Made by a program: the position numbers and the translations under genes. This document shows positions 57,839-62,443 of a stretch of DNA of 64,000 bases, piece after piece (positions within the stretch are counted from its first letter, which is position 1; each line of letters opens with the position of its first letter). The stretch is from Jiangella gansuensis DSM 44835. Lineage in GTDB: Bacteria > Actinomycetota > Actinomycetes > Jiangellales > Jiangellaceae. Below the pieces are notes generated by a model. It was given only the letters and a program-made list of their open reading frames with translations, had not been told where the DNA came from and did no database searches. The stretch is from assembly GCF_000515395.1 (NCBI RefSeq), contig NZ_KI911782.1, positions 1,403,090 through 1,467,089 on the forward strand, written 5' to 3'.

Positions 57839-58117
57839 TCAGCGGCGCGAGAAGCCCCGCTCGCTCTCGGTGAGCCCGCCCCAGATGCCGTAGCGCTCCG
57901 GGAGCGCCGCTGCGGCCTCCCGGCACTGCTGGGCGACAGGGCAGGTGGTGCAGATGTTCTTCGCGATCTGCTCTCGGGCACGCAGCGTGCTGCCACGGCC
58001 CTCGGGATAGAACAGATCGGTGTCCATGCCGCGGCAGGCGGCGTACGCCCGCCACGCGTCCCGCAGTTCGAACCAGTCCTCGGCGTGCGCGTCCATGTGA
58101 TCGGCCAGTGCAGTCAT
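57839..58117 (-). CDS. WhiB family transcriptional regulator
   Basis: A 92-residue WhiB protein. Fe-S ligands are Cys28 (ACRGMDTDLFYPEG), 56, 59 and 65 (ICTTCPVAQQC), then the RYGIWGGLTESER turn that contacts sigma region 4. No AT-hook tail, unlike WhiB7; it resembles the WhiB2/WhiB1-like short class. GGGGGA lies about 11 bases before ATG 58117. Its promoter region is shared with nothing divergent; the sigma-receptor gene ends 286 bases upstream on the same strand. Confidence 0.92.
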   Translation of the reverse strand: MTALADHMDAHAEDWFELRDAWRAYAACRGMDTDLFYPEGRGSTLRAREQIAKNICTTCPVAQQCREAAAALPERYGIWGGLTESERGFSRR

Positions 58118-58290
58118 GCGGCCAGTTCCCCCTTCGCCGTCCCGGTGCTGATCAGTGCCTTTGATCACCAGGACAGAGATGTGACCCCGTCATGACGCGC
58201 TCGCACGGAAATTTCTCGAGAAAGTTCGGGGGCCTCAGCGGGGGTCCGGACGAACCGGGTGAACGGGTCGGTTCCGGCGGCCGATCCGAC

Positions 58291-58402: not shown

Positions 58403-61363
58403 TCAGCGCGCCACGAACCAGAAGTGCTGGTTGGAGCCGCCGTGCAGCGGCCAGAGCAGGAGCCGGCCGTTCGGGCTCACACTGTCGATGTCGAGCCCGT
58501 AGGCGGGGAACACCGCGCTCTCGACCTGTTGCGGTGCCGTGCTGTCCGGGCTGATGCTCCAGCGTTGGTCGGCGCCGCCGTCGCAGGTGCTCAACGCGAC
58601 CGGCTGCTGTTCGCCGACGGCCTGCAGGCACAGATCCGCGGTGCCGGTGCGGCGGCGGATGGTTCCGTCGGTGGTGAGGCCCCAGTCGTCGGCGTGCGCA
58701 CTGCTGCAGGCGCCGGCGCGCGGGCCGTCCGGCCCGACCACGATGCATCGCTCGCCGCCGTGCAGGCCGAGATTCACCTTCAGCTGGCCGGGAACGGCGA
58801 TCGTCAGCGCAGCGGCCTCACTGGTGGCTGTGCCGACCGCGTTGGCGAACACCGCGCGGTAGCTCCGGCCGTCGTGCTCGCGGCCGACGTCGTTCACGGA
58901 CAGCGTGGCCTGGGTGCCGGTGCCGGAGGCGCCGTCCACCGCGGTCCACTGCTGCGTTCCGGGCAGCTGCTGCTCCCAGTGCCAGGTGGCCTCAGGCACA
59001 GCTGCCGTGGTCGTGGCGGTGTAGGTGACGTCCTGGCCCGCCCACGCGGTGGTGTCGGCCGGGTGCGTGATGAGCTCCGGCGCCCACCGGATCGTGACCT
59101 CGGCCGGTTCGGTGGTGACCGAGCCGAGCGGGTTCGTGAACACGGCGCGGTACTGGCGGCCGTCGTGCGTGAGCGTCAGGTCGGTCAGGGTCATCGCGGC
59201 GGCGTTGCCGGAACCGGTGGCACCCGGCACCGCGGTCCACGGGCCGGCGGCGGAGACGGCGGTCTCCCACCGCCAGGTGGACGCGGGGTTGCCGGTGACC
59301 TCGGCGGTCAGCTCCGCGGAGTCGCCGGGTTCGGCCTCGACGTCTGCCGGCTGCGCGGTGACCTCAGGTGCCCACCGCACGCTCAGCGTGGCCGGTTCGG
59401 AGACCGTTTCACCCACCTCGTTGGTGAAGACCGCGCGGTACTGGTTGCCGTTGAGCTCGCGGCCGGCCATGACCTGCAGCGTCGACGTCGTGCCTTCCTG
59501 CCGCGAGGAGGCGATGTCGGGGTTGGGCGCGCGCCAGTCGCTGCCGGGGCGTCGGACCTGCCAGGTGATGGTGGCGACGCCCGGGTTGGCCCTCGCGGTG
59601 GCTTCGAACGTGACGGACCGGCCTTCGTCGGCCGTGGCGCTGCGCGGATGGGCCTCGATCTCCGGGCTGTACCGCACCGTGATGACGGCCGGCTCGGTGG
59701 CGATCGTGCCCAGGGCGTTGGCGGCCCGCAGCCGGTAGGCGCGTCCGTCCATCTCCGACGTCGGGGCGTCGATAACGAGGGTGTCGCTGGTCTCGCCCGC
59801 GATGTCGACCCAGTCCTCCTCGGCCGGAGGCGCGGCGGGCGGGTCAGTGCCGTCCCCCGGGGTCTCTTGGTACACGGCGGGTACGAAGCTCGGCGAGCCC
59901 GACGATGTGCGCAGGAACCAGCGCGACGCGGCGGCCGAGTCCTGCGCCGGTGCGGGCTCGGCGAACTGCCATTGCAGCTGTGGCGGCGGGTTGCCGGACA
60001 CCGCGGCGGTGAGCACGACTGGTTCACCGGCGACGACCACCGGGTTCGGCGGCGGCTGCACGTCGATGCTGGGAGCCTGCTCCGCCTCCGGTGGGTCGCT
60101 CGGCGACGGCGTTGGGCTCGGCTCCTCGGTCGGCTCGTCGGACGGCTCCGCGGACGGTTCGTCGGAGGGTTCCGAGGACGGCGACTCCGAAGGCTGCGAC
60201 GGCTCGACGTCGGGCACGTCCACCGGTGGTGCGGGATCGTCGGCGGGCGGCTCGTCGTCCAGCGGCGGCTCGTCCTCCGCCTGCGCCGGAGGCGAGTCCG
60301 GTTCGGTGTCGGGTGGAGCGGCCGGCGGTTGTTCCTGGGTGTCCGGAGGCGGGGGCGGCGGGTCGGCGTCGTTGCTGCCCGGCTGCTCCGGCTCGGCGGA
60401 CGCCGACGGCACGGCGGCCGGCTCGTCGTCCGGGCCGTCGTCGGCGACCGCGAGGTATGCGGCGACGGCGATGGCCGCGGCGGCAGCCGCTGCCGCCCCG
60501 CCGACGGCGAGCTGCCGGGCCTGCTTGCCCCACCGGGCAGGGGAGAGGAAGGCGAGGACTCCGCCGCCGGCCGCGCCCGCCCCGGCCAGGGCGGCCGCTC
60601 CGACTCCGGACGCCGGGAGCAGCAGCGCCGGCCAGAGCACGCCGCGCATGTCGGAGACCAGCAGGAGCAGTTCGTCGCGGCGCTCGCGGCAGTGCGTGCA
60701 CGTGGCGAGGTGGGCACTCATCTCGCGGGTGTCGTGTGCGGACAGAGTGCCCCGCACATAGGAGGCGATCTTGGGTGCGTACGGCCGGCAGTCGGGCTGC
60801 ACCTCGGCCGACAGGTTCACCGCGAGGTACGCCTGGCGCAGGCCCTCGCGGGCGCGGTAGGCGAGCGCGGCCACGGCGTTGGCCGATCCGCCCAGTGTGG
60901 GTGCGAGCGACGCCGGCGACCGGCCCTCGATCTCGGTGTGCCACAGCACCTGCTGCCACCGCTCGGGCAGCGTCTCGAACGCGTGCCGGACAAGCTGCCG
61001 GTCGGTGGAGCGCGCCATGGGGTCGTCGGCGTGCGGGAGCACGTCGAGGATGGACGGGTCGGACACCTGGCCGGAGCGCTGTGAGGTGCGGTGCCGGTCG
61101 ATGGCCAGCCGGCGCACGACCGTCTTGAGGTACGGGGCGAACTCGAGGTCCGGGCCGCCGCCCTCGGTCAACCGGGTCAGGACCCGGGTGAAGGCCTCGG
61201 CGACGACGTCTTGAGCCTCGTCGCTGTTGTCGGTGACGATGCGGGCGACCTTGGAGGCGTCGTCGACGTGACGCCGGTAGAGCTCGTCGTAAGCGGCCAT
61301 GTCGCCCGCGCGCGTGCGCGCGATGAGCTGTTCATCGCTGGCGGCATCTGCTGGAGTGGTCAC
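58403..61363 (-). CDS. Sigma-70 (ECF) factor fused to zf-HC2, membrane segment, four Ig-like repeats and a ricin-type lectin domain
   Basis: A 986-residue single reading frame. Sigma region 2 covers about 10-90 (NSDEAQDVVAEAFTRVLTRL), region 4 about 120-180 (LPERWQQVLW, GGSANAVAALAYRAREGLR). A zinc finger of the anti-sigma type follows (HLATCTHC, 218-225). Hydrophobic stretches occur at 241-274 and 285-306, separated by a Lys/Arg loop. A Pro/Ser/Glu-rich linker (310-430) leads to four Ig-like repeats (about 431-563, 566-663, 664-758, 759-855) with RAVFTN-type strands, then a ricin-B-like domain (860-986; DQRWSI, SNQHFW). Sigma/zf-HC2 fusions are known in actinobacteria; the Ig array plus lectin would let an outer sugar signal control the attached sigma factor. 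It starts 31 bases after the degenerate-GGDEF gene. Confidence 0.9.
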   Translation of the reverse strand: MTTPADAASDEQLIARTRAGDMAAYDELYRRHVDDASKVARIVTDNSDEAQDVVAEAFTRVLTRLTEGGGPDLEFAPYLKTVVRRLAIDRHRTSQRSGQVSDPSILDVLPHADDPMARSTDRQLVRHAFETLPERWQQVLWHTEIEGRSPASLAPTLGGSANAVAALAYRAREGLRQAYLAVNLSAEVQPDCRPYAPKIASYVRGTLSAHDTREMSAHLATCTHCRERRDELLLLVSDMRGVLWPALLLPASGVGAAALAGAGAAGGGVLAFLSPARWGKQARQLAVGGAAAAAAAAIAVAAYLAVADDGPDDEPAAVPSASAEPEQPGSNDADPPPPPPDTQEQPPAAPPDTEPDSPPAQAEDEPPLDDEPPADDPAPPVDVPDVEPSQPSESPSSEPSDEPSAEPSDEPTEEPSPTPSPSDPPEAEQAPSIDVQPPPNPVVVAGEPVVLTAAVSGNPPPQLQWQFAEPAPAQDSAAASRWFLRTSSGSPSFVPAVYQETPGDGTDPPAAPPAEEDWVDIAGETSDTLVIDAPTSEMDGRAYRLRAANALGTIATEPAVITVRYSPEIEAHPRSATADEGRSVTFEATARANPGVATITWQVRRPGSDWRAPNPDIASSRQEGTTSTLQVMAGRELNGNQYRAVFTNEVGETVSEPATLSVRWAPEVTAQPADVEAEPGDSAELTAEVTGNPASTWRWETAVSAAGPWTAVPGATGSGNAAAMTLTDLTLTHDGRQYRAVFTNPLGSVTTEPAEVTIRWAPELITHPADTTAWAGQDVTYTATTTAAVPEATWHWEQQLPGTQQWTAVDGASGTGTQATLSVNDVGREHDGRSYRAVFANAVGTATSEAAALTIAVPGQLKVNLGLHGGERCIVVGPDGPRAGACSSAHADDWGLTTDGTIRRRTGTADLCLQAVGEQQPVALSTCDGGADQRWSISPDSTAPQQVESAVFPAYGLDIDSVSPNGRLLLWPLHGGSNQHFWFVAR

Positions 61364-61394: not shown

Positions 61395-62273
61395 TCAGTC
61401 CAGGGAACCTGTCCCTGAGTGGCGGAAACTGGGCGGCCTGACGGCATGATCGACATTAGCCCCCCCATGTAGCCGTGTCACGAGTTCCGGCAATCGTGCT
61501 CGGGTGTCCGGGACAGCGAAGACGTCGACCATCACATGTGCAGTGCTCAGTTCACCGTTTTCGACCGCCTTCGTCAAGGAGATCCGTTCCACTCGCGCCC
61601 GTGCGTCGTCGGGCACCAGCGCCATCGCCATTGTCGTGCCGACCTGGCTCAGCGTGGCCTCCGGCCGGACCCTCGACCGTAGTGCCGATGCGGCCTGCAG
61701 GATGCGGGCGATGCGCATCCACGGGCCGGCCGCGGCATCCCACCGGACCACGATGAGAACCAGTGCCATCGGTTCCGTGGCCGACAGCCGGTCCAGCTCC
61801 TGCACCCGGCCGTAGAGATAGCCAGCGGTGTGCAGGCCAGACAGCGGGTCGACTCCCGGCGACCCGCGCTCGGCGGCGACGGCGTCCACCCACGCGTCGA
61901 CCAGCCGGTGCCGGGCAGTGGCACGCGGTAGCGGCGCCCCGCCGGTGTCCTCCAGCACGTCCCAGAGCTCGTCCAGCTCGGCCAGCAGGCAGGTGAGGTC
62001 CGTACTCGCTGCGGCACGCTCCCAGGCGAACACCGTCAGCGAGTGCGACACCTCCTCCGGCTCCGGCCGCTCGGCGCCCAGAGCCTCCAGCACGGCCTCG
62101 ACGCCCGGTGGAGGCAGCGCCCCGGACGGCGCGCCCGCCCCGCCCGCCTGGCTCGCGGGGCCATCGGCCCCACCCGGGCCGGCGGTCCTGGCCGTGGCCC
62201 GGCCCGGCTGTTCCAGCCATGCGGTCAGCAGCGTCGGTTCCGGCACGCCACCGCCATGGTCACACCCCGTCAT
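61395..62273 (-). CDS. Protein with degenerate GGDEF-like domain
   Basis: A 292-residue protein. An acidic N-terminal region with a Gly/Ala/Pro-rich stretch precedes a domain that follows GGDEF-family landmarks: DPLSGLHTAGYLYGRV (142-157, cf. the DPLTGL start) and MALVLIVVRWD. At the active-site hairpin, where GGDEF would stand, it reads SQVGTTMAMALVPDD (about 209-223), so cyclic-di-GMP synthesis is not expected. The gene is immediately upstream of, and co-directional with, the sigma-receptor gene (31-base gap), suggesting a shared operon. ATG 62273 has GGGGGA nine bases upstream; ATG 62282 and GTG 62300 are alternatives. Confidence 0.65.
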   Translation of the reverse strand: MTGCDHGGGVPEPTLLTAWLEQPGRATARTAGPGGADGPASQAGGAGAPSGALPPPGVEAVLEALGAERPEPEEVSHSLTVFAWERAAASTDLTCLLAELDELWDVLEDTGGAPLPRATARHRLVDAWVDAVAAERGSPGVDPLSGLHTAGYLYGRVQELDRLSATEPMALVLIVVRWDAAAGPWMRIARILQAASALRSRVRPEATLSQVGTTMAMALVPDDARARVERISLTKAVENGELSTAHVMVDVFAVPDTRARLPELVTRLHGGANVDHAVRPPSFRHSGTGSLD

Positions 62274-62385
62274 ATCCGGCATTCCCCCGCCTTCGCGCAC
62301 GCTTCGGAATCGTCCCTTGCTTTATCACGACGGGACAGCGGCGGCATCATGACGCGGGCGTGGCGACGAAATCTCGGCGGGTTTT

Positions 62386-62443
62386 CCCTTGATCATCAAG
62401 AGTCGGCCCGGCCAGCACCGGGTCAACCCTTGATGATCAAGGG
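62386..62443. repeat. Family-2 palindromic repeat in a divergent promoter region
   Basis: CCCTTGATCATCAAG (62386-62400) mirrors CTTGATGATCAAGGG ending at 62443, with GGCCCGGCCAGCACCGGGTC between. It lies 22 bases upstream of the AI-2E family gene start and 113 bases from the divergent GGDEF-like gene start. Its interior matches the copy at 28703. Confidence 0.9.

What the first reader, a model, noticed from the sequence alone, without database searches (positions are those of the whole stretch)
58403..61363. One-polypeptide sigma factor, anti-sigma finger and Ig/lectin ectodomain
Seen: an uninterrupted 986-residue frame with ECF sigma regions 2 and 4, a HLATCTHC zinc finger, hydrophobic stretches at 241-274 and 285-306, a Pro/Ser/Glu-rich linker, four Ig-like repeats of about 96-133 residues, and a ricin-type domain. 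Established: sigma/zf-HC2 fusions with membrane segments exist in actinobacteria. Inference: this molecule is a membrane-tethered sigma factor whose outer domain binds a glycan. The Lys/Arg-rich loop between the hydrophobic stretches (275-284) suggests only the second one spans the membrane, which would put the Ig and lectin parts outside. How RNA polymerase would reach a tethered sigma (proteolysis or in-place activation) is open, and the Ig array plus lectin is the unusual part.
Basis: partly seen in the sequence, partly recalled or inferred. Interest (0 to 1): 0.85.

Follow-up and report, generated by a model that had tools for sequence, protein, structure and literature searches.

The report
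Membrane-tethered sigma factor with GGDEF-like partner
A soil actinobacterium carries a gene switch, its likely brake, a membrane anchor and a lectin-like outer arm in one protein; the design is a known kind, but it comes with an unannotated companion gene and a shared start signal that recur beside its relatives in many actinobacteria.

Summary
In detail: minus-strand 58403-61363 encodes one 986-aa protein: ECF sigma regions 2 and 4, anti-sigma zinc finger, one membrane helix (284-308), acidic Pro-rich stalk, four Ig domains and a ricin-type trefoil. Fused orthologues in 16 of 17 fetched Jiangellaceae loci exclude a frameshift. Sigma factors fused to anti-sigma, membrane segment and carbohydrate-binding module are already described (ECF52, SCO4117), so the Ig-ricin arm is a new sensor on a known plan. 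Less expected, and outside the given coordinates: the gene just upstream (61395-62300) is a degenerate GGDEF protein that no Pfam or NCBIfam model matches. Homologues adjoin the fused sigma in 17 of 17 Jiangellaceae loci, 24 of 42 other fused loci and 75 of 80 named best-match loci. A promoter-like element, GCGTCA[TC]-N16-CGT, faces that partner in 17 of 18 Jiangellaceae and 19 of 24 other regions (about 0.04 expected each). Best reading: a self-inhibited, tethered, autoregulated sigma freed by a wall or environmental glycan, with the pseudo-GGDEF protein as partner. Ligand, release and partner role are inferred.

The parts
58403..61363 (-). fused sigma / anti-sigma / TM / ectodomain gene, 986 aa
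   Evidence: single frame; fused orthologues in 16 of 17 Jiangellaceae loci
61076..61336 (-). sigma region 2 (residues 10-96)
   Evidence: Pfam Sigma70_r2, AF2 helices, phmmer match to solved ECF sigma factors
60809..61021 (-). sigma region 4 (residues 115-185)
   Evidence: NCBIfam sigma70-ECF 24-178; Pfam r4_2 below cut-off; AF2 helices
60620..60802 (-). anti-sigma domain with zf-HC2 (residues 188-248); ligands C192, H218, C222, C225
   Evidence: Pfam; invariant columns of the 50-row alignment A5; AF2 helices 196-248
60515..60619 (-). Gly/Ala linker (residues 249-283), read as not spanning the membrane
   Evidence: variable length in orthologues, pLDDT under 50 from residue 252
60440..60514 (-). 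membrane helix (residues 284-308)
   Evidence: hydropathy peak in 17 of 17 proteins
60086..60439 (-). acidic Pro/Ser/Glu-rich stalk (residues 309-426)
   Evidence: 0 K/R and 35 D/E in 307-425; pLDDT under 50 to residue 422
58784..60085 (-). four Ig domains: about 427-561 (with disordered insert 475-505), 562-665, 666-762, 763-860
   Evidence: Pfam, AF2, Foldseek/VIA matches to I-set arrays
58406..58765 (-). ricin-type beta-trefoil (residues 867-986); C873, C886, C912, C927
   Evidence: Pfam, AF2 strands, Cys positions
61395..62300 (-). upstream partner gene, degenerate GGDEF protein (301 aa as called; the true start may be 62282 or 62273)
62330..62355 (-). ECF-type promoter element GCGTCAT-N16-CGT in front of the partner-sigma operon

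Best explanation
This is a one-polypeptide, self-inhibited, membrane-tethered ECF sigma factor. Its cytoplasmic sigma2-sigma4 module is held by the adjoining zinc-finger anti-sigma domain. A Gly/Ala linker leads to one membrane helix (N inside, C outside). Outside, a Pro-rich stalk and four Ig domains carry a ricin-type trefoil into or beyond the cell wall. A glycan or wall signal at the arm is relayed inward, most likely by regulated proteolysis near the membrane, and frees the sigma module. The sigma then transcribes its own operon (partner plus sigma) from GCGTCAT-N16-CGTC. The pseudo-GGDEF partner, made from the same operon, acts in the cytoplasm as a non-catalytic partner of the sigma or anti-sigma domain. 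Shown by computation: domain order, topology signs, conservation, gene order, partner fold and adjacency, promoter motif. Inferred: self-inhibition, co-transcription, proteolysis, glycan ligand, recognition of the motif by this sigma, and the partner's role.
Against: No experiment on this protein. The partner is not universal: 18 of 42 non-Jiangellaceae fused loci lack it, among them the SCO4117-like L043 and the two loci that cluster with it (L097, L116). Of those 18 partner-less loci the strict motif faces the sigma in 3 (all of one family, f36), faces away in 1, and is absent on both strands in 15. In 35 of 75 named partner loci the strict motif is missing, and the relaxed motif also faces the sigma in 13 of 75. 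No protease or cleavage site was sought. No sugar-binding residues were tested in the trefoil. The AF2 model of the whole protein has pTM 0.43, so the placing of domains against each other, the anti-sigma on the sigma included, is not shown. Motif hits elsewhere did not define a regulon. The profile was built from 22 of the 27 genomes it then found, one search scored at most 65 candidates per genome, and the 80 named loci are the best matches to a partner-bearing sigma; all this favours the partner-bearing clade. The 18 Jiangellaceae regions are close relatives, not independent.
Confidence: 0.64

Rival explanations
1. Tethered sigma activated in place: ligand binding shifts the anti-sigma domain and RNA polymerase is recruited to the membrane without cleavage.
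For: The flexible Gly/Ala linker (about 35 to about 115 residues) could let the sigma reach polymerase and DNA while tethered.
Against: The described fused membrane sigma factors point to proteolysis (IutY shown, SCO4117 proposed; passages).
Confidence: 0.2
2. The outer arm is a constitutive adhesin or wall anchor, and the zinc finger senses a cytoplasmic cue (redox, zinc, or the pseudo-GGDEF partner); the arm only fixes position.
For: Zinc ligands are invariant columns in 50 rows while the arm varies in Ig number (two in P0012 and P0013, four here) and in kind between families; the partner lacks any hydrophobic anchor in its model and is presumably cytoplasmic (inference).
Against: Carbohydrate-binding or adhesion-type arms recur in separate lineages (NPCBM in L043, ricin in L046/L047, Ig-ricin here, Big_9/cadherin-like in L229), which suggests sensing. 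PMC7406223 (passages) argues that the zinc motif is often structural.
Confidence: 0.25
3. The pseudo-GGDEF gene is only a target or a genomic neighbour and plays no part in sigma control.
For: In ECF41 the neighbouring gene carrying the promoter is the only detected target (PMC3426412, abstract and passages). Partner-less fused sigmas exist (18 of 42).
Against: One strong copy per genome, each beside the fused sigma, across several families and in two gene orders; a mere target would be expected to move away more often.
Confidence: 0.35
4. Frameshift or assembly artefact joining two genes.
For: None found.
Against: Fused frames of 881-1015 aa in 16 of 17 ortholog loci and in deposited proteins such as P0002-P0006 and P0008-P0013.
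Confidence: 0.01

Closest known systems
ECF52 sigma factors (SCO4117, Streptomyces coelicolor; PMC5826349, abstract and passages seen)
   Same: sigma, zf-HC2, membrane region, Pro-rich extension and carbohydrate-binding module in one protein, in Actinobacteria; autoregulation reported
   Different: binding module there is smart00776 (that this is NPCBM is recalled), here Ig array plus ricin trefoil; the SCO4117-like locus L043 (NPCBM, TetR gene upstream) and its tree neighbours L097 and L116 lack the partner and the promoter element; the window clade does not join the L043 clade specifically
ECF53 and ECF48 (PMC8999054, passages seen)
   Same: C-terminal fusion with zinc finger and one to two membrane helices, expected to be controlled by proteolysis
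   Different: no sequence of either group was fetched, so relation not tested
ECF41 (PMC3426412, abstract start and passages seen)
   Same: C-terminal regulatory extension; promoter TGTCACA-n16-CGTC in front of a conserved neighbour gene
   Different: not a membrane anti-sigma fusion (recalled); neighbours are carboxymuconolactone decarboxylases, oxidoreductases or epimerases, not GGDEF proteins
IutY (ECF243), Pseudomonas putida (PMC8999054, passage)
   Same: sigma and membrane anti-sigma in one chain
   Different: iron-siderophore signalling; released by Prc and RseP
SigI/RsgI of Clostridium thermocellum (recalled; RsgI named only in a reference title in PMC10766802)
   Same: sugar-binding ectodomain relays to a sigma factor
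   Different: sigma and anti-sigma are separate proteins
GGDEF domains such as SiaD, LapD, PleD
   Same: fold of the partner's residues about 147-285
   Different: 0 of 30 partner sequences and 0 of 77 homologues hold GG[DE]EF; 0 of 30 hold FKxxN

Membership tests
ECF sigma factor (sigma-70 superfamily) | sigma regions 2 and 4 | tested here: met
   TIGR02937 66.1 bits over 42.9 cut-off; Pfam r2 over, r4_2 under its cut-off; AF2 helices
ECF sigma factor (sigma-70 superfamily) | residues that contact RNA polymerase | tested here: inconclusive
   alignment to solved SigE spans regions 2 and 4 and region 2 columns such as D52 and F58 are invariant or nearly so; contacts not examined one by one
Class I zinc-binding anti-sigma domain | Hx3Cx2C motif plus upstream ligand | tested here: met
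   C192, H218, C222, C225 invariant in the 50-row alignment; zf-HC2 over cut-off
ECF52 | order sigma, zinc finger, TM, Pro-rich region, carbohydrate-binding module | tested here: met
   order met, the ricin-type trefoil being counted as carbohydrate-binding by homology only
ECF52 | sigma sequence clusters with SCO4117 | tested here: inconclusive
   54-row tree: window clade (11 rows, 100/100) and the clade of SCO4117-like L043 (5 rows, 100/98) are separate inside a 22-row group of support 91/88 that is unresolved; SCO4117 itself and the group's model were not available
ECF53 / ECF48 | clustering with reference members | not tested
   no reference sequence fetched
GGDEF superfamily (partner) | GGDEF fold | tested here: met
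Active diguanylate cyclase (partner) | GG[DE]EF signature | tested here: not met
   0 of 30 and 0 of 77
Ricin-type lectin | beta-trefoil profile and fold | tested here: met
   Ricin_B_lectin 36.8 bits over 29; AF2 strands; no fold search of the trefoil alone
Ricin-type lectin | sugar-binding residues | not tested
   not examined

The most novel reading that the evidence does not exclude
Fused membrane sigma factors of several actinomycete families form an undescribed module with a pseudo-GGDEF protein as dedicated cytoplasmic regulator, the pair sharing a GCGTCAT-N16-CGTC promoter, so that an outer-surface sensor and an intracellular (possibly nucleotide-linked) input meet on one tethered sigma. 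The Jiangellaceae version reads wall or environmental glycans through an Ig-ricin arm.
Probability: 0.4. Interest if true: 0.75.

Novelty: new variant of a known kind. Interest (0 to 1): 0.58.

Why it matters
How a sigma factor works while tethered to the membrane, and what sugar-binding arms on such proteins sense, is open even for SCO4117, which its authors call the first ECF52 member characterised. Here the comparison gives three things a bench group can use at once: a predicted promoter to build a reporter on, an unannotated partner gene to delete, and a single-helix topology that says where to look for cleavage. If the partner binds the sigma or anti-sigma domain, it would join GGDEF-type proteins to sigma control in a widespread group of actinomycetes.

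Tried and rejected
Frameshift artefact: rejected by 16 of 17 fused ortholog frames. Two membrane helices: rejected by the variable Gly/Ala linker, absence of the first peak in L035, L037, L039 and L040, and charge distribution. Active diguanylate cyclase: rejected by the missing signature.

Regulon search: CGTCAT-N16-CGTC has 15 places in the own genome (the pattern read backwards 0); GCGTCAT-N16-CGTC has 11, 8, 5, 1 and 3 places in G005, G001, G010, G008 and G018. By blastn of the flanks only the operon site recurs in the own genome and all five. One further site, between convergent genes, is shared by G000 and G005 (L119/L159) and is unexplained; L138/L158 match over about 2 kb and may be coding. 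No regulon is claimed.

Trees: in the quick 77-row tree one unfused sigma (L098, very long branch) fell inside the fused group and the four unfused rows were not one clade. It was rebuilt with 54 rows, without the longest branches (L044, L045, L084, L098, L101, L107, L111, P0032) and some near-copies; the outgroup is then only L099 and L100, close relatives, so the 100/100 split of fused from unfused says little. Partner presence needs 5 changes on that tree, 11.5 on shuffled labels (0 of 500 as low).

Partner in family libraries: no match over a cut-off; the weak ones were single and scattered (E 0.022 or worse). Fold search of the whole 986-aa model listed only Ig matches in its first 50 rows, so the sigma and trefoil parts were not tested by fold.

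Literature: search listings only. Searches (GGDEF, ECF sigma factor, Actinobacteria, zinc finger; 3 of 4 terms; ECF, genomic context, GGDEF, anti-sigma factor, sigma factor family; 4 of 5) listed 10 and 14 papers, none of which by title and start of abstract describes this partner; others (ECF, sigma factor, lectin, fused, anti-sigma, immunoglobulin; sigma factor, ricin, Jiangella) listed none on a sigma-Ig-lectin fusion. GGDEF occurs 0 times in the main text of PMC8999054. The ECF reclassification paper (10.1093/nar/gkaa1229) is not held; Huang 2015, Pinto and Mascher 2016 and Pinto 2019 were not seen, so the partner may be noted there.

Rows dropped: L038 sigma (run of N) from the full-length comparisons; L039 and L042 partners, whose starts my script misplaced (tblastn finds both genes), from A3, A4 and A6; G011's orthologue runs off its contig and was not fetched in full; 14 of 164 proteins had no usable sigma module. 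In one search the automatic gap for L106 and L112 came from spurious small domains; one search shows the main partner domains next to the sigma. Of the 80 named loci at least L165 and L234 have contig lengths equal to genomes already used for the partner profile.
Full report
WHAT IS THERE. Minus-strand 58403-61363 is one open frame of 986 residues with a GTG start. Pfam places Sigma70_r2 at 28-96, Sigma70_r4_2 at 123-173 (below its cut-off), zf-HC2 at 192-226, four Ig stretches and Ricin_B_lectin at 885-981. The ECF superfamily model is over its cut-off. The sigma part matches solved ECF sigma factors by sequence, best 9m9d SigE, E 4.7e-9; the arm matches I-set arrays such as Robo1 (E 5e-16) and, for the lectin, a type II ribosome-inactivating protein chain, 1ce7 (E 4.4e-5). 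AlphaFold (mean pLDDT 79.2, pTM 0.43) folds sigma2, sigma4 and the anti-sigma helices up to residue 248, leaves 99-116, 252-422 and 475-505 under pLDDT 50, and folds four Ig domains and the trefoil; with that pTM the placing of the domains against each other is not reliable. The protein has seven cysteines: three zinc ligands (192, 222, 225) and four in the trefoil.

NOT AN ARTEFACT. In 40 genomes searched with residues 1-310, the window's own and 18 relatives carry close orthologues (E 2.1e-131 or lower). Of 17 loci fetched in full, 16 have fused frames of 881-1015 aa and one (L038) is broken at a run of N. Among the 120 database proteins listed (of 320 with E up to 0.001), 12 (P0001-P0006 and P0008-P0013, the window's own included) carry sigma, Ig and lectin domains in their precomputed Pfam lists; those with names are from Jiangella, Haloactinopolyspora and Phytoactinopolyspora. 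The genomes themselves are unnamed; that they are Jiangellaceae is inferred from these names and from equal contig lengths. Orthologues keep 78-95% identity to the window in residues 1-235 but 34-64% in 426-986 (16 orthologues). The window protein has four Ig domains where L026 seems to have three: Ig4 aligns best to the place in L026 that answers to Ig3 (41.9% identity) and is 44.8% identical to Ig3 within the protein.

TOPOLOGY. The first hydrophobic stretch begins inside the last confident helix (239-248) and runs into a Gly/Ala linker that grows from about 35 to about 100-115 residues in L037 and L039-L042. Its hydropathy peak is missing in L035, L037, L039 and L040, while the second peak is present in 17 of 17 proteins. 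Residues 307-425 hold no Lys or Arg and 35 Asp or Glu. I read this as one helix (284-308), N-terminus inside, arm outside; no dedicated topology program was available. That the 239-248 helix is the anti-sigma helix 4 that binds sigma2 (PMC7406223, passages) is inference.

THE KNOWN CLASS. SCO4117 of S. coelicolor is described as sigma, zinc finger, membrane region, Pro-rich extension and carbohydrate-binding module, and a form truncated to the sigma domain activates its own gene (PMC5826349, abstract and passages). ECF48, ECF52 and ECF53 are expected to be released by proteolysis (PMC8999054, passages). I found an SCO4117-like locus, L043: sigma, zf-HC2 (17.5 bits, under cut-off), NPCBM (95.6 bits), with a TetR-family gene just upstream, as the paper reports atrA upstream of SCO4117 (that AtrA is a TetR protein is recalled). 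Of 13 Streptomyces plasmid records with a match, the two examined for this (L046, L047) carry a ricin-type arm. So the window protein belongs to a described kind with a lineage-specific arm. In a 54-row tree the window clade is 100/100 and its relation to the L043 clade is not resolved. ECF52 membership by sequence is therefore inconclusive.

THE PROMOTER. Aligned upstream regions show a two-block element of ECF type, GCGTCAT, 16 bases, CGT(C), at 62355-62330 on the minus strand in the window. The form GCGTCA[TC]-N16-CGT faces the partner in 17 of 18 Jiangellaceae regions (window and 17 loci) and 19 of 24 divergent regions, with about 0.04 expected in each set from first-order resampling of the same regions. 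It faces the sigma in 1 of the same 24, in 3 of 18 partner-less fused loci (all three of family f36, which has 4 of the 18), and in 0 of 4 unfused ECF genes; on the other strand of the 18 partner-less loci it occurs in 1. In the 75 named partner loci the strict form faces the partner in 40 (0.2 expected) and the sigma in 3; a relaxed form faces the partner in 61 (2.0 expected) and the sigma in 13; in the 5 named partner-less loci neither form occurs on either strand. Because in Jiangellaceae the partner and then the sigma follow this element, it is most simply an autoregulated promoter. ECF41 offers the closest precedent, TGTCACA-n16-CGTC in front of its neighbour gene (PMC3426412). That this sigma reads the motif is inferred, and no wider regulon could be defined.

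HOW IT PROBABLY WORKS. Shown: composition, topology signs, conservation, gene order, partner fold and adjacency, motif. Inferred: the anti-sigma domain holds the sigma; a wall or environmental glycan acts on the trefoil; a protease or a shift frees the sigma; it switches on its own operon; the pseudo-GGDEF protein tunes the sigma or its inhibitor. Arms differ by family (NPCBM, ricin, Ig plus ricin, Big_9/cadherin-like, DUF11) while the cytoplasmic part is kept, which fits exchangeable sensors on one core but does not prove sensing. Several arms scanned had no Pfam match at all (for example L083, L198).

LIMITS. The samples favour the partner-bearing clade. Papers that list genomic contexts of ECF groups could not be read, so I cannot say the partner is unreported, only that the listings did not show it and that it is absent from the passages seen.

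Noticed in passing
window 62386-62443: Inverted repeat with CCCTTGATSATCAAG palindromes between the promoter element and the divergent AI-2E-type transporter gene; absent at this place in the 9 other Jiangella-type loci aligned. The 15-mer pattern has 14 matches in 9 places of the own genome: a dispersed palindromic element or terminator.
   Followed up: partly
window 57839-58168 (-): A WhiB-family gene lies downstream of the fused sigma on the same strand in 17 of 17 Jiangellaceae loci.
   Followed up: no
L046, L047 (Streptomyces plasmids): Plasmid-borne sigma fused to a ricin-type lectin with a zinc-finger-like motif that Pfam does not score.
   Followed up: partly
L119 / L159: CGTCAT-N16-CGTC site shared by G000 and its near relative G005 between convergent genes, with no conserved reading frame seen behind it; possibly a small RNA.
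   Followed up: partly
P0032: 608-aa relative with a weak zf-HC2 match and Ig domains whose sigma part does not match Sigma70_r2 at E 0.01: perhaps a degenerate sigma.
   Followed up: no
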